From the IMG/VR virus record IMGVR_UViG_3300017917_002501, positions 1 to 37,257 of that record: a stretch of 37,257 nt of DNA, one strand, 5' to 3'. This DNA is from a virus. The notes beneath the pieces are model-generated. The model did not search any database. It saw nothing but the letters and a program-made list of their open reading frames with translations, and was not told where the DNA came from. Positions within the stretch are counted from its first letter, which is position 1; each line of letters starts with the position of its first letter. A program made the position numbers and the translations under genes. Below are positions 530-7,148 of the stretch, in pieces.

Positions 530-541
530 GTTTCATCTCTG

Positions 542-607
542 CGTTCCACGCTATTTATAGCAAGCGTCCCCTGAGATGATCATCCTGAGTATGATGTTAA
601 ACTGCTC
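542..607 (+). ncRNA. Candidate structured RNA element, copy 1
   Basis: This stretch shares an ordered set of blocks with 7049-7117: CGTTC, CTATTT, AAG-n-G-n-TC, then TCCT and a terminal hairpin. The hairpin is GAGTA (587-591)/TGCTC (603-607) with an 11-nt loop TGATGTTAAAC. It is followed by TATTTTTAATT, so in this copy it could also work as a terminator. It lies after the gene at 359 and before the promoter at 689. The element class is not one I can name. Confidence 0.4.
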
Positions 608-631
608 TATTTTTAATTGCCCTGCAAAAAC

Positions 632-658
632 GGGACGTCGTTTGTGATGTAAATCACA
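632..658 (+). promoter_or_regulatory. GGGACGTC box plus CRP/GlxR-like palindrome
   Basis: GGGACGTC at 632-639 is followed after 3 bp by TGTGATGTAAATCACA (643-658), a perfect TGTGA-N6-TCACA palindrome as bound by CRP-family regulators (GlxR in Actinobacteria). Its centre, 650.5, is about 73.5 bp upstream of the predicted start (724) of the promoter at 689, a class-I activator distance. A third half-site TGTGA lies at 667-671. Function is inferred from the consensus. Confidence 0.6.
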
Positions 659-688
659 TCTCATTATGTGAGACAATTAAGAAGCGGG

Positions 689-717
689 TTGAAAATGTCA
701 GGACCCAGTGCTATTAT
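689..717 (+). promoter_or_regulatory. Promoter of the 748 gene
   Basis: TTGAAA (689-694), 17-bp spacer, TATTAT (712-717). The predicted start is near 724, giving a short leader with AACAGAAAGAGG before ATG 748. The CRP-like site at 643-658 sits about seven helical turns upstream. Confidence 0.6.
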
Positions 718-747
718 TATATTAAACAACAACAGAAAGAGGCCCCC

Positions 748-1227
748 ATGGGAAGCGAACTACAAGACGCAGTAACAATTGATAAAGTTACTGTACCATA
801 CAATCCACATCTACTTGTTACGTACAAGGCCATTCCAGATACATATGCTGCTCCAGAAGAGCCAACTTATTTAACCTCTAAAATTACAGAGATTGAATGG
901 GACCTGCACAATCATCGTACAAACAAAAAAGCGCTACAGAATTTAAAGAGTACAATCAATACTCTTGAAGAGCAAATTGTTGACTGGTTTGATTCAGAAT
1001 ATTCTAAAGAGGATGTTCTTACAGCAATTTGCGAACACTTTGGCATTAGCCCAGTTAAGGAAATTGAAATTGAAGGTACTGTCTCATTCAGTGGAACAAT
1101 TAATGTGCCCATTGCAGACATGGCTGACTTTGACATTAATAATGTAACAATTGATGTTGACTTGAATTCATATGACTATGATGCAGATTTAAGGGTTGAC
1201 GAAGTGTCAGTAGAAGGTCCTTACTAA
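748..1227 (+). CDS. Hypothetical phage protein (159 aa)
   Basis: ATG 748 has the ribosome-binding region ACAGAAAGAGG. The 159-residue product has a helical, Lys/Glu-rich middle (about 45-85, EIEWDLHNHRTNKKAL...LEEQIVDWF), then a very acidic beta-like C-terminus (SFSGTINVPIAD, DINNVTIDVDLNSYDYDADL). No catalytic motif or Cys cluster is visible and I recognise no family. It is a single-gene transcript between its own promoter (689) and a hairpin-rich region (1231-1318), with a CRP-like site upstream as for DUF932. Confidence 0.75.
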   Translation: MGSELQDAVTIDKVTVPYNPHLLVTYKAIPDTYAAPEEPTYLTSKITEIEWDLHNHRTNKKALQNLKSTINTLEEQIVDWFDSEYSKEDVLTAICEHFGISPVKEIEIEGTVSFSGTINVPIADMADFDINNVTIDVDLNSYDYDADLRVDEVSVEGPY

Positions 1228-1230
1228 ATT

Positions 1231-1318
1231 TGATAGGGGGCTATCAGAACTGGCTACGGTACAGCCAGTATAAATAAGTGGCCAAAGGGACCTGAGCATT
1301 GTCCATGTAAACGGCTCA
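1231..1318 (+). other. Three consecutive hairpins in an intergenic region
   Basis: TGATAG-gggg-CTATCA (1231-1246), ACTGGCT-acggtac-AGCCAGT (1249-1269) and TGAGC...GCTCA (1293-1318) follow each other within 90 nt just after the stop of the 748 gene. The first two are perfect. The third belongs, more loosely, to the hairpin series seen at 587, 2494 and 7097. AAGTGGCC at 1276-1283 resembles the block found before the other hairpins. No strong U-tract follows the first two, so simple termination does not explain them. Confidence 0.5.
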
Positions 1319-1336
1319 CCTTTCTTTATAAAAATT

Positions 1337-1363
1337 GACGTCCCGCCTGTGATCTATATCACT
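1337..1363 (+). promoter_or_regulatory. GACGTCCC box plus CRP/GlxR-like palindrome
   Basis: GACGTCCC (1337-1344, the reverse complement of the box at 632) is followed after 3 bp by TGTGATCTATATCACT (1348-1363), a TGTGA-N6-TCAC site. Its centre, 1355.5, lies about 83.5 bp upstream of the predicted start (1439) of the DUF932 promoter, one helical turn further than at the 748 gene, so the same DNA face is used. This is inferred from consensus and spacing. Confidence 0.55.
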
Positions 1364-1403
1364 TTAAGAAATGTCCGATTTGCCCCATGTTTACGTAGCC
1401 TAT

Positions 1404-1432
1404 TTGACTTCCCCCTAGATTTTTGGTATGCT
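1404..1432 (+). promoter_or_regulatory. Promoter of DUF932 gene, TTGACTTCCCC class
   Basis: TTGACT (1404-1409), 17-bp spacer starting TCCCCC, TATGCT (1427-1432). The predicted start near 1439 lies before ATG 1465, which argues against the longer open frame that begins inside the promoter. Confidence 0.75.
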
Positions 1433-1464
1433 TAATTAAACAATCTACAGAAAGAAGAAAACTC

Positions 1465-2481
1465 ATGGCACATGACCTAGAAACACAAAACGGAAAAGCA
1501 TCTTTTGCATCTTTCCGTGAACCTGCATGGCATGGATTGGGTACCGTATTCACAGAAGAAAAAACAACTTCAGAAATGCTGGAAGCAGCAAATCTAAATG
1601 GTTGGAATGTTCGTCTTGAAGATATGCCTATTCCATCACACTTAACAAGCGACAAAGAATACCAATATGTTGTTCGCACAAATCCTACAGACAAAACTCA
1701 AACAGATGTTTTGGGTGTTGTTGGTGAGCGTTATCATGTTTTACAGAATGAAGATTTATTTTCATTTGGTGATAACATCCTAGATGGTGGTGGTCGCTGG
1801 GAGACCGCTGGCTCAATTAAAGGTGGGCGTGTTGTATTTGGTGCTCTTGCATTAGAGCGTGAAACAATTCTTGACCCTAGCGGTGTTGCTGATAAGGTAA
1901 AGACTTATCTTCTCATTAACACATCACATGATGGCTCAATCGCTATTCAAGCAAGCATCACACCAGTGCGTGTTGTATGCGCTAATACTCTTAACCTTGC
2001 GTTAAATACTACCAAAAAGAAAAATGGTGTTAAGCAATCTTTCAAGATTCGCCACACTCAAACAGCAAATGGTAAAGTACAAATTGCTCGTGAGACTTTA
2101 GGTCTTGCTAATGCGTACATGGATGCATTTGATATCATGGCTAAAGCAATGATTGAAAAAGAAATCTCTGCTCAACAATTCAATGATATCATTCTCGCTG
2201 CTTATCCTAAGCCTGATGCAGATGCAAAAGGTTCTTTCAAGAAATGGGAAAATAAAATAGATATGATTAACGATATCTATACTGGCGAGTTTAATGGTAT
2301 GATTGCTGGCAATGCTTGGGGAGCGTTTAACGCACTCACTGAGCGTTTAGATTGGTATCGTTCTGCTCGTGGTGGTTCTAATGAATCTATCCTTGCAAGC
2401 GCATCTGGATTTGACCCTGCAATTAACGCAGAAAAAAATCGTTTGCTAAAAGTTGTACAAAATACTTTGCAACTAATTTAG
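1465..2481 (+). CDS. DUF932 / phage-plasmid-like protein (TIGR03299 type)
   Basis: The 338-residue product begins MAHDLETQNGKASFASFREPAWHGLGT, the typical start of the DUF932/TIGR03299 phage-and-plasmid family, which is found in many phages and plasmids but has no settled function. ATG 1465 was chosen over an in-frame TTG at 1423 because the latter overlaps the -10 box and because ATG 1465 has the ACAGAAAGAAG ribosome-binding region. The gene stands alone on its transcript, with a CRP-like site upstream and a hairpin plus tRNA-Asp downstream. Family assignment is from memory of its conserved N-terminus. Confidence 0.85.
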   Translation: MAHDLETQNGKASFASFREPAWHGLGTVFTEEKTTSEMLEAANLNGWNVRLEDMPIPSHLTSDKEYQYVVRTNPTDKTQTDVLGVVGERYHVLQNEDLFSFGDNILDGGGRWETAGSIKGGRVVFGALALERETILDPSGVADKVKTYLLINTSHDGSIAIQASITPVRVVCANTLNLALNTTKKKNGVKQSFKIRHTQTANGKVQIARETLGLANAYMDAFDIMAKAMIEKEISAQQFNDIILAAYPKPDADAKGSFKKWENKIDMINDIYTGEFNGMIAGNAWGAFNALTERLDWYRSARGGSNESILASASGFDPAINAEKNRLLKVVQNTLQLI

Positions 2482-2493
2482 TAAAAAAATCCT

Positions 2494-2514
2494 GAGCATG
2501 ATTTAAAACTGCTC
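2494..2514 (+). other. Hairpin of the recurrent 11-nt-loop series
   Basis: GAGCA (2494-2498), loop TGATTTAAAAC (11 nt), TGCTC (2510-2514), preceded by CCT. The stem differs from the copy at 7097 (AGACA/TGTCT) by compensating changes while the loop is nearly the same. It ends 4 nt before tRNA-Asp, so it may also matter for processing of that tRNA. Confidence 0.55.
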
Positions 2515-2518
2515 GCAT

Positions 2519-2592
2519 GGAGTGTTAGCATAGTTGGTTAATGCGCTACCCTGTCACGGTAGAGATCACGGGTTCAAGTCCCGTACACTTCG
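2519..2592 (+). tRNA. tRNA-Asp (GTC)
   Basis: Full cloverleaf: acceptor GGAGTGT/ACACTTC (one G.T pair), D-stem GCAT/ATGC, anticodon stem CTACC/GGTAG with loop CTGTCAC (anticodon GTC), T-stem ACGGG/CCCGT with loop TTCAAGT. The discriminator base is G, as expected for Asp; CA follows, so only part of CCA is encoded. It reads GAC and GAT, the latter abundant in this AT-rich genome. Confidence 0.95.
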
Positions 2593-2653
2593 CAAATGCG
2601 GGACGTCATTTTTAAAACTAACTAATTTGACATTTTTTCTTTATTAAGAAGAC

Positions 2654-2682
2654 TTGCTTTTTTCCCCAGTTTCTTGTAAAAT
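2654..2682 (+). promoter_or_regulatory. Promoter giving a leaderless start at 2689
   Basis: TTGCTT (2654-2659), 17-bp spacer containing TTCCCC, TAAAAT (2677-2682). ATG 2689 lies 6 nt after the -10 box, where transcription should begin. Confidence 0.65.
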
Positions 2683-2688
2683 ATTAAT

Positions 2689-2922
2689 ATGACCTTAGAA
2701 ATTGAAATATATGAAATGAACTACGCCCTATCTCCTGGTGGTCTTGACTGTTGGGAAGCAACAATAAGAAAGGGATATGATAGTAATTGTATCTCAGACT
2801 TTAAAACTGCGGGGGATGCATTGAATTACATTATTGACAAATACCCTGACGAAATGTTAGAATTAACTGTAACATCCCTTCCAGCATATGAAAAGGCAAC
2901 CACATCTTATGCAACCAATTAA
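2689..2922 (+). CDS. Hypothetical protein (77 aa)
   Basis: ATG 2689 coincides with the expected transcription start, so the mRNA is probably leaderless. The 77-residue acidic product (MTLEIEIYEMNYALSPGG...) looks like a small alpha/beta domain; a DFKTAGDALNYI segment around 37-50 resembles a helix of a small dimeric fold. No family is recognised. It starts a run of six overlapping or abutting genes up to 3582. Confidence 0.7.
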   Translation: MTLEIEIYEMNYALSPGGLDCWEATIRKGYDSNCISDFKTAGDALNYIIDKYPDEMLELTVTSLPAYEKATTSYATN

Positions 2923-3067
2923 AGAACCATATACAGTACAAGAACTTATAGACAAAATATATGAAGACAATTTCTCCCACCTAGATTTTATGGATAACAT
3001 GGGTGGAGAAGATTGCGATTGTCGTATTCACATTACACTTAATACTATGATGGAATATTTGGGTTAA
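2909..3067 (+). CDS. Small hypothetical protein (52 aa)
   Basis: It overlaps the end of the previous gene by 14 nt. ATG 2909 is preceded at distance by AAAAGG (2891-2896). The product, 52 residues beginning MQPIKEPYTVQELIDKIYED, is acidic with a DCDCR motif near residue 34, which might bind a metal. No family recognised. Its position in a tightly packed run supports translation. Confidence 0.55.
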   Translation: MQPIKEPYTVQELIDKIYEDNFSHLDFMDNMGGEDCDCRIHITLNTMMEYLG

Positions 3068-3069
3068 TT

Positions 3070-3228
3070 ATGTTAGGTTATAAAGTAAAAGATTTAAACA
3101 ATATGGTTTATGGCATTGATACTGCTCTATTGCTTATTAATACTGATGAGAATCCTGCTATTGCTAGATATTTAACTACCGCTTCAGATTTCCTACAAGG
3201 TTTATGGTCAGAAGGGTATTTTGACTAA
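3070..3228 (+). CDS. Small hypothetical protein (52 aa)
   Basis: It starts 2 nt after the previous stop and ends in a TAATG overlap with the next gene, so translation is probably coupled. The product begins MLGYKVKDLNNMVYGIDTALL and looks helical; no motif is recognisable. Confidence 0.55.
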   Translation: MLGYKVKDLNNMVYGIDTALLLINTDENPAIARYLTTASDFLQGLWSEGYFD

Positions 3229-3362
3229 TGGACACAACTTGCTCTAATTGCACATATGAAGTAAACTCAGTAGATGAATATACTGGATTATGCCAAACCT
3301 GTAAAAATGCATATGATGAAGGTTTTGCTGATGGAGTAAGGCAGTCTACCAATGTGGGCTAA
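3228..3362 (+). CDS. Cys-rich mini-protein (44 aa)
   Basis: ATG 3228 overlaps the preceding stop (TAATG). Two pairs, C5-x2-C8 and C22-x2-C25, fit a small zinc ribbon. The C-terminal half carries FADGVRQ. It overlaps the next, also Cys-bearing, gene by 11 nt. Metal binding is inferred from the spacing; the partner is unknown. Confidence 0.6.
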   Translation: MDTTCSNCTYEVNSVDEYTGLCQTCKNAYDEGFADGVRQSTNVG

Positions 3363-3582
3363 GTATATATTTGTTTGTGACCCTAGTGAGTGTGATGCTC
3401 TTCTTGAATTTACCGCCAGAGATGGGTATGGATTCCCAAATGGGGTAGTTAGGATGTACTGCCCTTGTGGTAGGGAAATGCAATATATCAGTGTTGAGGA
3501 GATCAAGGGGAAATTCTATGAACCTGTGATTAAGGTCACACCCCCAAAAGTTGTCAAAATCAACTCCAACCCCTATAATTAA
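3352..3582 (+). CDS. Zinc-ribbon-like protein with CPCG motif (76 aa)
   Basis: The product starts MWAKYIFVCDPSECDALLEF and carries YCPCGREM near residues 36-43. The arrangement Y-x-F-V-C-x4-C-x5-E...CPCG-x2-M recurs in the proteins encoded at 7492 and 8968, so this is the longest member of a small paralogous set. Zinc binding by the two Cys pairs is likely. The C-terminal tail (KVTPPKVVKINSNPYN) is unique and covers the promoter of the next gene. Confidence 0.7.
   Translation: MWAKYIFVCDPSECDALLEFTARDGYGFPNGVVRMYCPCGREMQYISVEEIKGKFYEPVIKVTPPKVVKINSNPYN
3551..3579 (+). promoter_or_regulatory. Promoter of the 3612 gene
   Basis: TTGTCA (3551-3556), 17-bp spacer, TATAAT (3574-3579), located inside the 3' end of the preceding gene. 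Expected start is near 3586, followed by ACAGAAAGAGA and ATG 3612. Confidence 0.65.
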
Positions 3583-3611
3583 TATTAAGACACTACAGAA
3601 AGAGACCCAGA

Positions 3612-4145
3612 ATGCATACACTACACTGGTGGGCAGTAGAGGCAGAGGACACAGAAGAAGCCTTTAGCCTTGTTAAAGAAAGACTAACTAATGATTCAGG
3701 AGACAGTTGGATAGACTGGTCTGATTGGCATGTAGTTGGTGGTGGTCGCTGGAACCCAAAGGGTAGCGGTTACGATGACCAATCAAATATGATTATTTCA
3801 TATGCTAAAGACCCTAAAAACTTTAAAGAAAAACTTGAGGGTATTAAGACTGCTCGTAAAGACGAGATGAATGAAATGCTCTCCAAGATTAATACTGATA
3901 GGTTTATTAGTGATATGGTTGACTACATATCAAACAATGGTATGCCAAACCCTGAAGAGCGCTTCTCTATGAACAATTACTATATTAGTAATGCAACTGA
4001 TTTGTTATCAGATAGTTATAAATCAGCCAGTTACTTTTATGATATGAAGGAATACACTGCTCATATGGGGTATGTTTATGAACGACTTGACAAATCCCCT
4101 GAAAATATGCGACAATATTTAGTACCAGTAGATTTTCACTTCTAA
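3612..4145 (+). CDS. Hypothetical phage protein (177 aa)
   Basis: It begins MHTLHWWAVEAEDTEEAFSLVKERL and includes WIDWSDWHVVGGGRWNP (about 35-52), a Trp- and Gly-rich segment, then a mostly helical C-terminal two-thirds. It has its own promoter (3551) and the purine-rich ACAGAAAGAGA leader. I have a vague memory of similar Trp-rich proteins in large aquatic phages but assign no function. The downstream genes to 5609 follow with minimal gaps, so it probably heads an operon. Confidence 0.75.
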   Translation: MHTLHWWAVEAEDTEEAFSLVKERLTNDSGDSWIDWSDWHVVGGGRWNPKGSGYDDQSNMIISYAKDPKNFKEKLEGIKTARKDEMNEMLSKINTDRFISDMVDYISNNGMPNPEERFSMNNYYISNATDLLSDSYKSASYFYDMKEYTAHMGYVYERLDKSPENMRQYLVPVDFHF

Positions 4146-4157
4146 GGAGACACCACA

Positions 4158-4328
4158 ATGGCAGAATATAGATTTATGACAGGCACTTGGCATACAATTC
4201 AAGTACCTGACGACAAAGTAGATTTACCTGAATACTCACCTGAAGAGTTATACGATGCATACTTCAGTGGTGATTTACCTGAAGATGTCGAGGTAGAGGA
4301 AGATGAGGTAGACCACATATGGGAGTAA
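4158..4328 (+). CDS. Acidic small protein (56 aa)
   Basis: A good AAGGAGA site (4144-4150) precedes ATG 4158. The product starts MAEYRFMTGTWHTIQVPDDKV and ends in a long Asp/Glu run (EDVEVEEDEVD). The acidity could mean nucleic-acid mimicry, but this is speculation. It overlaps the next gene by 10 nt. Confidence 0.7.
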   Translation: MAEYRFMTGTWHTIQVPDDKVDLPEYSPEELYDAYFSGDLPEDVEVEEDEVDHIWE

Positions 4329-4777
4329 CAGTTCCTGATTTTATTGAGATGGACCTTGATGAATGGTTTGATAAGTACAAGCCAATCAAAAACCATATAG
4401 ATACTAATTCATCATTTGATGGCCACATGTTTGAGACCTATGGTGAAGAGGTAGAGTTTGTCAAGGCACAAGAGCAAAACCGTATCTGGATGTATGGAGA
4501 TGGCGATGATGGAGAAGGCCATATCTGGAGTGGATGGGGTTTTGTTAATCGAATAGGATACTTTATCACCGAGGTACCATTTCCAGAAAATACAGATGTT
4601 CAAGTTAATCTAAATGATTACTATTATCACTGTGAAAACTGTAATGAGGAATGGGAAGGTGCTGCTGGTCATCTAATTAATGATACATTGGGTGAGATTT
4701 ATAAGTGCCCTGCTTGCGCTACGATGGAAGAGATAGTAGAATATGAATACACACCAACAGAGGAGAATAATGTTTGA
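4319..4777 (+). CDS. Hypothetical protein with C-terminal zinc ribbon (152 aa)
   Basis: The core contains FETYGEEVEFVKAQEQNRIW and GWGFVNRIGYFIT (about 38-88), a pattern I associate with a conserved protein of T4-like aquatic phages. The C-terminal part has CENCNEEW (from residue 104) and CPACA about 20 residues later, two CxxC pairs of a zinc ribbon. ATG 4319 overlaps the preceding gene; the 3' end overlaps the next by 8 nt. Role unknown. Confidence 0.75.
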   Translation: MGVTVPDFIEMDLDEWFDKYKPIKNHIDTNSSFDGHMFETYGEEVEFVKAQEQNRIWMYGDGDDGEGHIWSGWGFVNRIGYFITEVPFPENTDVQVNLNDYYYHCENCNEEWEGAAGHLINDTLGEIYKCPACATMEEIVEYEYTPTEENNV

Positions 4778-5102
4778 CCTTAAAGAACTAATTTATGCAG
4801 GTTCATTTTCAGTAGATAGTGGACAAGCCATAGTAGGCGACCCTTGCTACTTACCTGACTATGACCCCAATACTAATGATGAGTGGGCACCTGAAGGTAA
4901 AGAGGGGCAATACTCTTATCAAGGTATATCTGCTACTACACTTAAAGATAACTATGGCACTATTAACGATGGCTCAGCGGTAGCATTTTCTACTGGCTAT
5001 GGCGATGGTTTATATCCTGTTTATGTTCAGTTAAATGAGGATAATAGAGTAGTGCTTGCTGTAATTGACTTTAACAATGAACTTGGATTGGAGAATGAGT
5101 AA
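4770..5102 (+). CDS. DUF4241-like protein (110 aa)
   Basis: ATG 4770 is chosen over ATG 4743 because GAGGAGAA lies just before it and because the conserved pattern begins soon after: FSVDSGQAIVGDPCYL, then NDGSAVAFSTGYGDGLYPVYV. This G-x-D-S-G-x-x-x-GDPCY signature is typical of DUF4241-like proteins in bacteria and phages, whose function is unknown. The stop overlaps the next start (TAATG at 5099-5104), implying coupling. Confidence 0.75.
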   Translation: MFDLKELIYAGSFSVDSGQAIVGDPCYLPDYDPNTNDEWAPEGKEGQYSYQGISATTLKDNYGTINDGSAVAFSTGYGDGLYPVYVQLNEDNRVVLAVIDFNNELGLENE

Positions 5103-5461
5103 TGGGAGCAAGAATCAATTACGTATTCAAGGACAGTGAGGATGGACCTAGTGTCGTTCTATATAGCCATTGGGGGCAAGACAATTGGCAGACTGACATT
5201 GCTGCAGCGCTAGAGCATTCAAAGCCACGATGGGGAGACTCATCATATGGCACCAGAATGATGATTAGCCACCTTATTAAAGACAGCATTCTTGATGAGA
5301 CAGGTTTTGGCTTGTACGCAATCAATGGGACCAACTATGATTTAGGGGAACAGACGATTGTCATAGATTTTATTAATCAAACTGTTACAGATAATATTCC
5401 TGTCAAATGGGATAAATTTATAGCAGCATATTCATCAGAGGAGGTGTTAGTAAATGCCTAA
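5102..5461 (+). CDS. Hypothetical protein (119 aa)
   Basis: The product starts MGARINYVFKDSEDGPSVVLYSHWGQDNWQTDIAAAL, a beta-rich opening followed by a helix. FGLYAINGTNYDLGEQTIVID suggests further strands. No catalytic motif is evident. It is coupled to the DUF4241-like gene upstream and overlaps the basic mini-protein downstream by 8 nt. Family not recognised. Confidence 0.7.
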   Translation: MGARINYVFKDSEDGPSVVLYSHWGQDNWQTDIAAALEHSKPRWGDSSYGTRMMISHLIKDSILDETGFGLYAINGTNYDLGEQTIVIDFINQTVTDNIPVKWDKFIAAYSSEEVLVNA

Positions 5462-5609
5462 GAAAAGATCTAAGAAGTATTCATACCTGGAGACTTGGAA
5501 CACACGCTATGGAAAGAGTCAGCGTGTTGTTATCAGACAGGATGGTAAGTTTGTAGACAATGTCTCACTTACCGCCCTAAAGCGAGGGCAAAGGGTCACC
5601 TCTCGCTAA
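5454..5609 (+). CDS. Very basic mini-protein (51 aa)
   Basis: ATG 5454 follows GAGGTG. The product, starting MPKKRSKKYSYLETWNTRYGKSQRVVI, is strongly Lys/Arg-rich and ends RGQRVTSR, so it may bind nucleic acid. It is the last gene before a hairpin terminator at 5616-5660. Family not recognised. Confidence 0.65.
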   Translation: MPKKRSKKYSYLETWNTRYGKSQRVVIRQDGKFVDNVSLTALKRGQRVTSR

Positions 5610-5615
5610 CGCTAG

Positions 5616-5660
5616 GGGGAGGGCAGGTTTGTGGTGGGCTTGCTCTCCCCACACTTTTTT
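5616..5660 (+). terminator. Hairpin terminator overlapping the next promoter
   Basis: GGGGAGGGCAGG (5616-5627) pairs with CTTGCTCTCCCC (5639-5650) over 12 positions including two G.U pairs, with an 11-nt loop; ACAC and a T6 run (5655-5660) follow. The -35 box of the next promoter (TTGCTC, 5640-5645) lies inside its 3' arm. Confidence 0.65.
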
Positions 5661-5668
5661 GATATACT
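5640..5668 (+). promoter_or_regulatory. Promoter of the 5685 gene
   Basis: TTGCTC (5640-5645), 17-bp spacer beginning TCCCC, TATACT (5663-5668). A ribosome-binding site AAGGGG lies before ATG 5685, so this transcript has a leader. Confidence 0.65.
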
Positions 5669-5684
5669 GACTTAAGGGGTAATA

Positions 5685-5915
5685 ATGTATCGCATTAGCA
5701 GAGTGACTGCACCAACCAAAGAAGAAAAAATTGCAAAGAAGATTGAAGCATTATTATCAGACTATGGATTAAATATTGAAGCGGTAGGAAAATATATGGC
5801 TATTGCAACACCACATTTAATTTATTGCAGGGCAGAACAAATGTTAGAAGCAATGGTATATAATAAAGAAGTACAACAACTCGACAGATTAGGATACTAT
5901 AGTGACAGGAAGTGA
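5685..5915 (+). CDS. Hypothetical helical protein (76 aa)
   Basis: AAGGGG precedes ATG 5685. The product is almost entirely helical by composition (KEEKIAKKIEALLSDYGLNIEAV...), basic at the N-terminus, with LIYCRAEQMLEAMVYNKEVQQLDRLG at 45-70. No motif recognised. Its end overlaps the GTG start of the next gene by 14 nt. Confidence 0.7.
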   Translation: MYRISRVTAPTKEEKIAKKIEALLSDYGLNIEAVGKYMAIATPHLIYCRAEQMLEAMVYNKEVQQLDRLGYYSDRK

Positions 5916-6183
5916 CTTTAACGATAAGGTTAAAATCTTATCAGACCTATGGATGAACTATAGGGATGATGAAGAGTTTGAAGATTTTTGTGACTATAAT
6001 GATATTGGTTTGCCATTAGCATATTTTGTGTCAAGTAATCTAGTTACACTTAGTGATATTGCTGAGATTTATATTAACGAAACTTTTGATTTACTTTGTG
6101 CTGCTTTGTCTTTGCCAAACATTGAAACTTATACTAGTTTAGAAGAAATGTTTGCGCTCTCTAATCAACTAAATAAAGAGTGA
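5902..6183 (+). CDS. Acidic hypothetical protein (93 aa)
   Basis: The GTG start at 5902 overlaps the previous gene, whose end supplies AGGA-type purines upstream. The product (93 residues, beginning MTGSDFNDKVKILSDLWMNYRDDEEFEDFCDYNDIG) is very acidic and helical. No family recognised. It is the last gene before the long repeat region and ends 7 nt before the GGGACGTCCC palindrome. Confidence 0.65.
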   Translation: MTGSDFNDKVKILSDLWMNYRDDEEFEDFCDYNDIGLPLAYFVSSNLVTLSDIAEIYINETFDLLCAALSLPNIETYTSLEEMFALSNQLNKE

Positions 6184-7000
6184 TCTTGGCGGGACGTCCC
6201 AAACCATATCAAATCGGACATTGCCAAACCTTATATCAGATATTACGATAGATCAATTTTTTTCCAGATTCCAAACATTACGATAGTTAAAAAATTTTCC
6301 AGATTCATGACAAACCTTATATCTTAAAAACCTTTGTTTGTCAAACCTTATATCCAGACTATAGTGTTTGTTATACCTATAGGGATATTACGAAGGATCT
6401 TTCTAAATCCCGTGCCCTAGCGTGTCTAATAATCTTAGCAGACATTACGAAGCGGGATTAAAAACCCCTGAACTCAATAAGAAAAACCCCTATATAAAAA
6501 ACAATTCTTTTCTGGATTTTTTTAAATATTATCAAACCTTTTTAAATTGTTTTGCAGATTTTTCTGACATTTTTGTGGGTTTTTTATATAGAAAATATAG
6601 TGGTTTGATACTTGACAAACAAGGTTTGATATGGTATAAGGCCCCTATATGCAAGATATGAAGGTTTGTTAAGTAAAGGCTAAGGTTTGTTAGGTAAAGG
6701 TTTGGACGCCAGGAGATTACGACGCCTTCTAAAAAAGTGCACTATAACCCATATATCTCCACTTCACTCCACTTTACACCACTAATTGATACTTAGTAAC
6801 ATTTATTTTCTGCAACGGTACATACCAAACCCTCATATCTGGCCATATAAGCCTATTTAAGGCCCTATTGGCTCTGGTTTGATATCAGGCTATGGATCAA
6901 AAACCTTAATATCAGGCATATAAATGTCAGGCGTATCAGGCATATCCTAAAAACAAGGTTTTGTATATAGGGTTATGTCTTATAGGGGTTATCAGGATAC
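6184..7000. repeat. Iteron-like repeat field; candidate origin or control region
   Basis: No convincing gene is present. Repeats seen: CAAACCTTATATC three times exactly (6225-6237, 6311-6323, 6342-6354) with variants at 6200 and 6899; its inverse AAGGTTTG at 6621, 6661, 6682 and 6698; ATTACGA at 6242, 6277, 6387, 6444 and 6716; two tandem 35-bp units (6242-6276, 6277-6311); two 19-bp units with a 21-bp period (6661-6679, 6682-6700); TATCAGGCATAT twice (from about 6910 and 6935). Forward and inverse forms lie mainly on opposite sides of about 6500. Confidence 0.6.
6191..6200. promoter_or_regulatory. GGGACGTCCC palindrome
   Basis: A perfect 10-bp palindrome whose half GGGACGTC also occurs at 632-639, 1337-1344 (inverted) and about 2599-2606. 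It is GC-rich against an AT-rich background and marks the left edge of the repeat field. Confidence 0.5.
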
Positions 7001-7002
7001 TT

Positions 7003-7031
7003 TTGACTTCCCCCGCAAAATTTGCTACAAT
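7003..7031 (+). promoter_or_regulatory. Promoter, TTGACTTCCCC class
   Basis: TTGACT (7003-7008), 17-bp spacer starting TCCCCC, TACAAT (7026-7031). No gene starts until 7155; the predicted transcript from about 7038 first covers the RNA-like element 7049-7117. Confidence 0.75.
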
Positions 7032-7037
7032 TATCTA

Positions 7038-7117
7038 AGAGGCATGAACGTTCTGTTCCCTATTTTGTGGAAGTGGTCGTAACTCTCTAAACTCCTAGAC
7101 ATGAGTTAAAACTGTCT
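7038..7117 (+). ncRNA. Candidate small RNA / structured element, copy 2
   Basis: It is transcribed from the promoter at 7003 and contains no plausible gene. CGTTC (7049), CTATTT (7060), AAGTGGTC (7071) and CCT (7094) appear in the same order and nearly the same spacing as in 542-607, and it ends with the hairpin AGACA (7097-7101), loop TGAGTTAAAAC, TGTCT (7113-7117). The stem changes are compensating relative to 2494-2514. A new promoter starts 3 nt after the hairpin. Confidence 0.4.
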
Positions 7118-7119
7118 AT

Positions 7120-7148
7120 TTGACTTTAAATACAAGGTTTGGTAAAAT
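7120..7148 (+). promoter_or_regulatory. Promoter giving a leaderless start at 7155
   Basis: TTGACT (7120-7125), 17-bp spacer, TAAAAT (7143-7148); ATG 7155 is 6 nt after the -10 box. Confidence 0.7.

What the first reader, a model, noticed from the sequence alone, without database searches (positions are those of the whole stretch)
542..7117. Repeated structured RNA-like element with a covarying hairpin
Two stretches (542-607 and 7049-7117) share, in order and at near-equal spacing, CGTTC, CTATTT, AAG-n-G-n-TC, TCCT or CCT, and a terminal 5-bp hairpin with an 11-nt loop TGA-n-n-TTAAA-C. The hairpin recurs at 2494-2514 and loosely at 1293-1318. Stems differ by compensating changes (GAGCA/TGCTC, AGACA/TGTCT, GAGTA/TGCTC with a G.U pair) while the loop is conserved, which is the mark of a selected RNA. 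All sit between transcription units on the + strand. I cannot match it to a known class; it may be a processing site, a protein-binding loop or a small RNA.
Basis: partly seen in the sequence, partly recalled or inferred. Interest (0 to 1): 0.78.

Follow-up and report, generated by a model that had tools for sequence, protein, structure and literature searches.

The report
Pseudoknot capping phage mRNA 3' ends
Many bacterial viruses end their genes with a tiny, tightly folded RNA knot placed almost exactly five letters after the stop codon and often directly before the spot where the RNA is cut; it most likely protects the freshly made end of the message from being chewed up, and it is in no RNA family library we could search.

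Summary
The "conserved loop" pairs with the bases just upstream, giving a 29-nt H-type pseudoknot: NNNNC-C-URRRYA-W-GNNNN-UAAAC-URYYYA. All four window sites fold this way. Both stems covary: 112 diverse copies are 88% paired, against 25-41% with partners slid. Rfam 15 does not contain it. It is common in phages of many hosts, sparse in bacterial chromosomes.

It is a 3'-UTR element. In 100 upstream-gene families it starts 5-7 nt after the stop codon in 62 and closer than 5 in 5; ordinary terminators do so in 19 of 125. It often abuts places where RNA is cut: 2-11 nt before tRNA genes (66/551, never just after one), directly before hammerhead ribozymes (5 cases), and directly before DUF2800 RNAs. 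In other phages a strong hairpin takes the same slot before hammerheads (37/60, same 5-7-nt spacing) and before DUF2800 RNAs.

Most likely it is a 3'-end cap: it shields phage mRNA 3' ends made by processing from 3'-to-5' exonucleases. Anatomy, spacing and interchange with hairpins are shown; exonuclease blocking is inferred.

The parts
581..607 (+). Pseudoknot A: S1 CATC(581-584)/GATG(593-596), L1 C, S2 GAGTA(587-591)/TGCTC(603-607), L3 TTAAAC. 51 nt after the stop codon of ORF 359-529, because a separate hairpin lies between
   Evidence: orthologous sites keep a covarying pseudoknot
533..579 (+).
   Evidence: sequence; relatives have TTATCTC/GAGATAA with another loop
1288..1318 (+). Pseudoknot D (variant loops): S1 GGAC/GTCC, L1 C, S2 TGAGC/GCTCA, L2 ATT, L3 ATGTAAACG; about 60 nt after the stop codon of ORF 748-1227
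   Evidence: orthologues after the same gene carry GGAC/GTCC, AATC/GATT, GGCC/GGCC
2487..2515 (+). Pseudoknot C: S1 AAATC/GATTT, L1 C, S2 TGAGCA/TGCTCG (outermost pair U-G), L2 T, L3 AAAAC; 6 nt after the stop codon by the 4-pair count and 3-4 nt before the tRNA
   Evidence: 61 distinct orthologous spacers all carry it; pair counts
7090..7118 (+). Pseudoknot B: S1 AACTC/GAGTT, L1 C, S2 TAGACA/TGTCTA, L2 T, L3 AAAAC; ends a stretch of about 80 nt that starts at a promoter (TTGACT 7003-7008, TACAAT 7026-7031) and stops just before a second promoter-like sequence at about 7119-7147
   Evidence: promoters read by eye from the sequence
1423..2481 (+). DUF932 protein gene (probable start 1465); its stop codon is 6 nt 5' of pseudoknot C
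   Evidence: Pfam PF06067 in an orthologue
2519..2593 (+). tRNA-Asp(gtc), directly 3' of pseudoknot C; RNase P cleavage at 2518/2519 would leave the DUF932 mRNA ending 3-4 nt after the pseudoknot
   Evidence: processing inferred from general tRNA biology

Best explanation
The element is a 29-nt H-type RNA pseudoknot that works as a 3'-end cap for phage mRNAs. It is placed as close behind the stop codon as a terminating ribosome allows (5-7 nt), so the ribosome finishes the gene without unfolding it. Downstream the transcript is cut: by RNase P at a tRNA, by a self-cleaving ribozyme, or presumably by host endonucleases in the short G-poor stretch that follows. The new 3' end then lies a few nt beyond the knot. 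The knot, probably stiffened by the A-rich loop L3 lying in the groove of S1, stops 3'-to-5' exoribonucleases and so keeps the open reading frame intact with a minimal 3' UTR. Shown: pseudoknot, covariation, 3'-UTR position, spacing, association with cleavage modules, replacement by strong hairpins in the same slot. Inferred: the fold in the cell, cleavage at these sites, exonuclease blocking, longer mRNA life.
For: Pseudoknot: 335 of 402 distinct contexts form all four S1 pairs in 35 pair combinations (shuffles mean 54, maximum 69). In 40 orthologues found by protein homology alone, 91.8% of cells pair against 26-36% slid; in 112 diverse copies 88.1% against 25-41%, with 130 double changes against 33 in shuffles. 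3' position: 184 of 287 lie within 20 nt behind a same-strand stop codon, only 29 behind an opposite-strand gene. Spacing, one value per upstream-gene family: 41 of 100 at exactly 5 nt, 62 at 5-7, 5 below 5; intrinsic terminators in the same DNA 19 of 125 at 5-7 and 24 below 5 (p about 1e-13). Upstream genes are unrelated: RNR, DNA polymerase, SSB, HNH, ArdA, DUF932 and others. Cleavage modules: tRNA starts 2-11 nt after the knot in 66 of 551 copies, 8 outside the DUF932 set against 0.3 expected, none within 60 nt after a tRNA; Arthrobacter phage Molivia has SSB - knot - 3 nt - tRNA-Gly. Hammerhead cores follow directly in L213 (two), L283, L290, L259. Interchange: of 60 other viral type III hammerheads, 37 have a strong hairpin ending at the ribozyme foot (control 18 of 600), 4-7 nt before the cleavage site in most and 5-7 nt after the stop codon in 19 of 35. 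Before DUF2800 RNAs the slot holds the knot or a variant in about 8 of 13 and a long hairpin in 3.
Against: No transcript-end, decay or structure-probing data were available. Most copies (roughly 85%) have no recognised cleavage module behind them. In some Firmicutes phages the knot follows an intrinsic terminator and precedes scaffold and capsid genes (D6E, phiEF-1.1), where an upstream 3' cap seems redundant. In a microprotein gene family of Aminicenantes and others the stop codon lies inside the knot. S2 is more conserved in sequence than a purely mechanical role needs. About one copy in six is followed by a U-run (84 of 523 against 25 at random), so some could be terminators.
Confidence: 0.6

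Rival explanations
1. Ribosome barrier: the knot stops the terminated ribosome from sliding on, insulating the next gene or tRNA from readthrough or reinitiation, or it modulates termination itself.
For: The mode at exactly 5 nt behind the stop codon is the geometry at which frameshift- or readthrough-type pseudoknots meet the ribosome's mRNA entry (general knowledge). Knots often fill the whole gap between two cistrons.
Against: Long tail of spacings (27 of 208 beyond 20 nt). Strong hairpins before hammerheads show the same 5-7-nt spacing, so the spacing is not special to a pseudoknot. No in-frame extension is kept (median 7 codons) and TAA is the commonest stop, against readthrough. The link with cleavage modules is unexplained.
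Confidence: 0.13
2. 5'-to-3' barrier (xrRNA-like): the knot blocks RNase J from the 5' side and so protects the downstream part of a processed transcript.
For: Pseudoknot-based xrRNAs block RNase J1 in vitro (PMC5760640). Position directly before scaffold and major capsid genes in several Firmicutes phages.
Against: At tRNAs and hammerheads the knot ends up on the upstream product, not the downstream one. At sites A and D the next gene has its own promoter, and in the Aminicenantes genes only a terminator follows. The tight tie to the upstream stop codon is unexplained.
Confidence: 0.12
3. A sequence-specific binding site or riboswitch-like regulator (host or phage protein, or small ligand) that happens to sit in 3' UTRs.
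For: S2, L1 and L3 are conserved in sequence while S1 is free; the phage T4 gene 32 pseudoknot is a protein-binding precedent (PMC3014915).
Against: Occurs behind at least 100 unrelated gene families in phages of many bacterial phyla; replaced by plain hairpins of unrelated sequence in the same slot.
Confidence: 0.08
4. Intrinsic transcription terminator built on a pseudoknot.
For: A U-run follows in 84 of 523; sites A and D in the window are followed by T-rich stretches.
Against: Most copies have no U-run, and tRNAs or ribozymes start 2-11 nt downstream and must be transcribed through. Spacing differs from terminators.
Confidence: 0.05

Closest known systems
Flavivirus and plant-virus xrRNAs (exoribonuclease-resistant RNAs)
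   Same: Compact pseudoknotted viral RNA thought to stop an exonuclease mechanically; placed in untranslated regions
   Different: xrRNAs stop 5'-to-3' enzymes with a ring-like fold of about 60 nt or more; this is a 29-nt plain H-type knot at phage mRNA 3' ends, proposed to act on 3'-to-5' enzymes; no sequence relation seen
Phage T4/T2 gene 32 mRNA pseudoknot
   Same: Phage H-type pseudoknot with a very short L1 and two stacked stems (architecture from general knowledge; PMC3014915)
   Different: One gene, 5' leader, 67 nt upstream of the start codon, binds gp32 for autoregulation; ours is behind many unrelated genes, in 3' UTRs
Luteovirus-type frameshift and MuLV readthrough pseudoknots
   Same: Short C-containing L1, A-rich L3, and a spacing of about 5-8 nt behind the decoded codon (general knowledge)
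   Different: No slippery site or conserved extended frame; hairpins replace it at the same spacing
Hairpins 5' of hammerhead cleavage sites in phages
   Same: Same slot: 5-7 nt after the stop codon, a few nt before the cleavage site
   Different: Simple GC-rich hairpins of unrelated sequence; not the same RNA family
REP-type 3' stabilising hairpins and terminator hairpins
   Same: 3'-UTR structures that protect against 3'-to-5' exonucleases (general knowledge)
   Different: Hairpins, chromosomal or coupled to termination; not pseudoknots, and not fixed at 5-7 nt behind the stop codon
Rfam RF02960 DUF2800 RNA
   Same: A phage RNA motif of unknown function that starts 1-2 nt after the pseudoknot in L226, L243, L312
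   Different: A separate, larger (158 nt) structure; the pseudoknot is not part of the Rfam model

Membership tests
Any Rfam 15 family | Covariance-model score at or above gathering over the element | tested here: not met
   Window and over 60 further loci with copies scanned: no family covers the pseudoknot; only neighbours (tRNA, Hammerhead_3, DUF2800, tmRNA, DUF805b) hit
L20 leader (RF00558) | L20-binding leader upstream of infC/rpmI/rplT | tested here: not met
   One sub-threshold hit (30.8 of 58.7 bits, L252) carried by a terminator hairpin and U-run
Viral xrRNA | Ring-like fold that blocks a 5'-to-3' exoribonuclease | not testable with these tools
   No structure or enzyme assay; the short H-type topology gives no room for the flaviviral ring (inference)
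Frameshift or readthrough pseudoknot | Conserved slippery site or conserved reading frame beyond the stop codon | tested here: not met
   In-frame extension median 7 codons, stop codons TAA 162, TAG 54, TGA 29; downstream tRNA in many cases
Intrinsic terminator | Helix followed directly by a U-tract | tested here: not met
   U-run in 84 of 523 only; transcription must pass site C and its orthologues to reach the tRNA
3'-end stabiliser (functional class) | Lies at the mRNA 3' end and slows 3'-to-5' decay | tested here: inconclusive
   Position next to cleavage modules met; decay not testable here

The most novel reading that the evidence does not exclude
Phages of most bacterial phyla share a modular way of making mRNA 3' ends without terminators: stop codon - 5 nt - structural cap (this pseudoknot or a hairpin) - a few nt - cleavage module (RNase P at a tRNA, hammerhead ribozyme, or as yet unrecognised modules such as DUF2800 RNA, which would then itself be a ribozyme or cleavage target). 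The pseudoknot would be the first natural family of pseudoknots that caps bacterial or phage RNA against 3'-to-5' decay.
Probability: 0.4. Interest if true: 0.9.

Novelty: new variant of a known kind. Interest (0 to 1): 0.78.

Why it matters
It appears to be an undescribed, very widespread RNA family: at least 120 viral stretches and at least 116 genome stretches before the scans hit their limits, with degenerate patterns. It gives a concrete answer to what self-cleaving ribozymes and stray tRNAs may do inside phage operons: cut long transcripts into stable single-gene messages with capped 3' ends. The 5-nt rule makes the idea directly testable, the knot marks gene ends and cleavage modules in phage genomes, and a 29-nt 3' cap with a freely changeable stem would be a useful stability tag in bacteria.

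Tried and rejected
Upstream shared words as part of the element: rejected. L20 leader: artefact of a terminator. Stop-codon readthrough, frameshift or a conserved second stop: frames not conserved. U-tract terminator as the general role. Selenocysteine insertion suggested by CC-UGA-G: rejected, since the UGA is not kept (AAG, GGA, AGA, GGG variants) and most knots lie behind the stop codon. Orientation test (convergent against divergent neighbours): uninformative, phage genes are nearly all co-oriented. Class-wide genome survey with one pattern: Bacilli 6/299, Clostridia 3/290, Gammaproteobacteria 0/368, Actinomycetes 0/296, Bacteroidia 0/294 besides the query genomes; this shows sparsity in chromosomes, but host restriction by RNase J content could not be settled because a Vibrio phage also carries a copy. 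tmRNA PK1 and type III toxin-antitoxin RNAs were considered from memory for their similar topology and dropped for different context (single copies behind many genes); no test was run. Weak BLAST hits in Staphylococcus Remus/Romulus-type phages were not checked.
Full report
1. What is in the window. The window is a 37,257-base virus fragment from IMG/VR. Its DUF932 protein is 88-96% identical to proteins of many metagenomic phages and up to 54% identical to those of Streptomyces phages. Reading further upstream changes the picture: in each case the 'conserved loop' TGANN.. is complementary to the bases just before CCT. Site A CATC-C-T-GAGTA-T-GATG-TTAAAC-TGCTC; site B AACTC-C-TAGACA-T-GAGTT-AAAAC-TGTCTA; site C AAATC-C-TGAGCA-T-GATTT-AAAAC-TGCTCG; site D GGAC-C-TGAGC-ATT-GTCC-ATGTAAACG-GCTCA. 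This is a classical H-type pseudoknot with a 1-nt L1 (C), a 1-nt L2 and an A-rich L3. A scan of both strands finds these four and no other convincing copy.

2. Is it more than chance? Loci fetched by DUF932 protein homology plus loci from a degenerate pattern gave 402 distinct contexts with an intact S2. All four S1 pairs form in 335, in 35 different combinations (AATC/GATT, CGAC/GTCG, ATTC/GAAT, GGAC/GTCC, CCAC/GTGG and so on), against a mean of 54 and a maximum of 69 when the 3' strands are shuffled among sequences. A test free of motif selection: the spacers between the DUF932 stop codon and the tRNA in 61 distinct sequences found by protein homology all consist of a short linker, the knot, and a few nt. 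Pair counts on 40 of these: 91.8% of cells paired, 26-36% when partners are slid, covariation score 0.208 against 0.093 in shuffles. On 112 copies from all sources, chosen without regard to S1: 88.1% paired, 25-41% slid, 130 double changes against 33, score 0.368 against 0.180. The structure is not in doubt.

3. How wide? Named phages include Staphylococcus SA13, Lactobacillus phiEF-1.1, thermophilic D6E, Mycobacterium Labelle, Arthrobacter Molivia, Synechococcus S-H35 and S-RIM4, and Vibrio D456. Within phages the copies of one record all lie on one strand, 1-8 per record among those matched. Random genomes of five bacterial classes rarely have one, so it is mostly a phage or prophage feature. 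Rfam 15 has no family for it.

4. Where does it sit? Right behind stop codons. Of 287 copies with a same-strand upstream gene, 184 start within 20 nt of its stop; only 29 copies follow an opposite-strand gene. One value per upstream protein family (100 families): 5 nt in 41, 6 in 12, 7 in 9, below 5 in 5. The upstream proteins are unrelated. Terminator hairpins in the same DNA behave differently: 19 of 125 at 5-7 nt, 24 closer or overlapping, 44 beyond 20 nt (p about 1e-13). A floor at 5 nt is what one expects if the knot must stay folded while a ribosome sits on the stop codon (inference from the known reach of the ribosome's mRNA entry). The 12-20 nt behind the knot are poor in G.

5. What comes next? 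This gave the functional lead. (a) tRNA genes start 2-11 nt behind the knot in 66 of 551 copies; outside the DUF932 family there are 8 where 0.3 are expected; no knot lies within 60 nt behind a tRNA. (b) Hammerhead ribozymes start directly behind it: two in the Polynucleobacter-associated contig L213 (50.5 and 41.2 bits to Hammerhead_3, the second below the family's cut-off), and in L283, L290 and L259; the predicted cut lies about 6-9 nt behind the knot. (c) Rfam's DUF2800 RNA starts 1-2 nt behind it in L226, L243, L312. So the knot repeatedly lies a few nt upstream of places where the RNA is, or may be, cut, always on the upstream product.

6. Interchange with hairpins. If the knot is a 3'-end structure, other phages should use something else in that slot. 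I fetched viral hammerheads by their core alone. None of 77 has the knot, but of 60 with a locatable cleavage site 37 have a strong hairpin ending at the ribozyme's foot (control 18 of 600), in most 4-7 nt before the cut, and in 19 of 35 cases 5-7 nt behind a stop codon, the same spacing as the knot. Before viral DUF2800 RNAs fetched by an internal word, the slot holds the knot or a variant in about 8 of 13 and a long hairpin in 3. Knot and hairpin thus look like two answers to one need: a stable structure between the stop codon and a processed 3' end.

7. Mechanism. I conclude that the knot most likely caps processed 3' ends of phage mRNAs against 3'-to-5' exoribonucleases. Shown by sequence: knot, covariation, spacing, cleavage neighbours, interchange. 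Inferred: folding in the cell, cutting at these sites, exonuclease resistance, effect on mRNA life. Points that do not fit well: many copies have no recognised cutter behind them; in D6E and phiEF-1.1 the knot follows a terminator and precedes scaffold and capsid genes, which would suit a 5' barrier; in a microprotein family of Aminicenantes and others the stop codon lies inside the knot. Rivals are given with their tests.

8. Known or new. It works like an exonuclease block or 3' stabiliser, but it is not a member of the xrRNA families by anything tested here. The T4 gene 32 pseudoknot is similar in build but is a 5' autoregulatory site (PMC3014915). xrRNAs block RNase J1 in vitro, which shows that small viral RNA folds can stop bacterial exonucleases from the 5' side (PMC5760640). 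The searches of open-access papers found no description of this element, but subscription journals and most supplements were not searchable, so prior notice cannot be excluded. I rate it a new RNA family, a new variant of a known kind (viral RNA-end-protecting structures).

9. Limits. Copies were found with sequence patterns, so variants are under-counted and S2 variation is biased in part of the data; gene ends come from simple ORF calling; related phages are not independent, although the per-family spacing and the separate tRNA and hammerhead cases address this; no expression data were available.

Noticed in passing
L203, L204, L207, L212, L216, L221, L225, L235, L236, L237, L247, L249, L252, L309, L317; variants L257, L265, L285, L303, L310: Conserved ~20-residue microprotein gene in Aminicenantes and other bacteria: strong Shine-Dalgarno, M-K-R-[FY]-x-[VIM]-P-R-x-[AS]-H-C-x-x-G-C-..-S-stop, with the pseudoknot over the stop codon and in most a terminator behind it. 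Function unknown.
   Followed up: partly
L226 5432-5592, L243 2824-2981 (-), L312 1691-1849 (-), L462, L464, L466, L468, L469, L474: DUF2800 RNA (RF02960) follows the pseudoknot directly, hinting that this orphan RNA motif is a cleavage module or sits at a processed 5' end. L272 and L245 carry a similar structured RNA behind the knot that Rfam does not match.
   Followed up: partly
L342-L421 (hammerhead loci): Most viral type III hammerheads found here have a strong hairpin 4-7 nt before the cleavage site and 5-7 nt after a stop codon: apparently ribozyme-made, hairpin-capped mRNA 3' ends.
   Followed up: yes
window 643-658 and 1348-1363: CRP/GlxR-like palindromes TGTGATGTAAATCACA and TGTGATCTATATCACT between pseudoknots A or D and the next promoter; similar TGTGAT..ATCAC sites occur in relatives.
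   Followed up: no
window about 632, 1337, 2600, 6191: A repeated CGGGACGTC word (either strand, palindromic GACGTC core) behind genes; possibly an operator.
   Followed up: no
window about 6190-7000: Intergenic stretch of about 800 nt full of short repeats (AAACCTTATATC, ATTACGA) with no clear gene.
   Followed up: no
window 291, 1404, 7003: Recurrent promoter-like sequence TTGACTTCCCCC with a -10 box about 17 nt on, before several small genes.
   Followed up: no
L318 about 2520-2580; L321 about 2040-2090: Between the pseudoknot and the scaffold gene of Staphylococcus and Lactobacillus phages a second hairpin recurs (CGTGGCGTTGCACG, CGTGGAGCGTTCCACG), possibly another small pseudoknot near the ribosome-binding site of the scaffold/capsid operon.
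   Followed up: no
L144 417-745: A tmRNA gene (alpha/permuted type) in a viral contig, about 1.7 kb from a pseudoknot.
   Followed up: no
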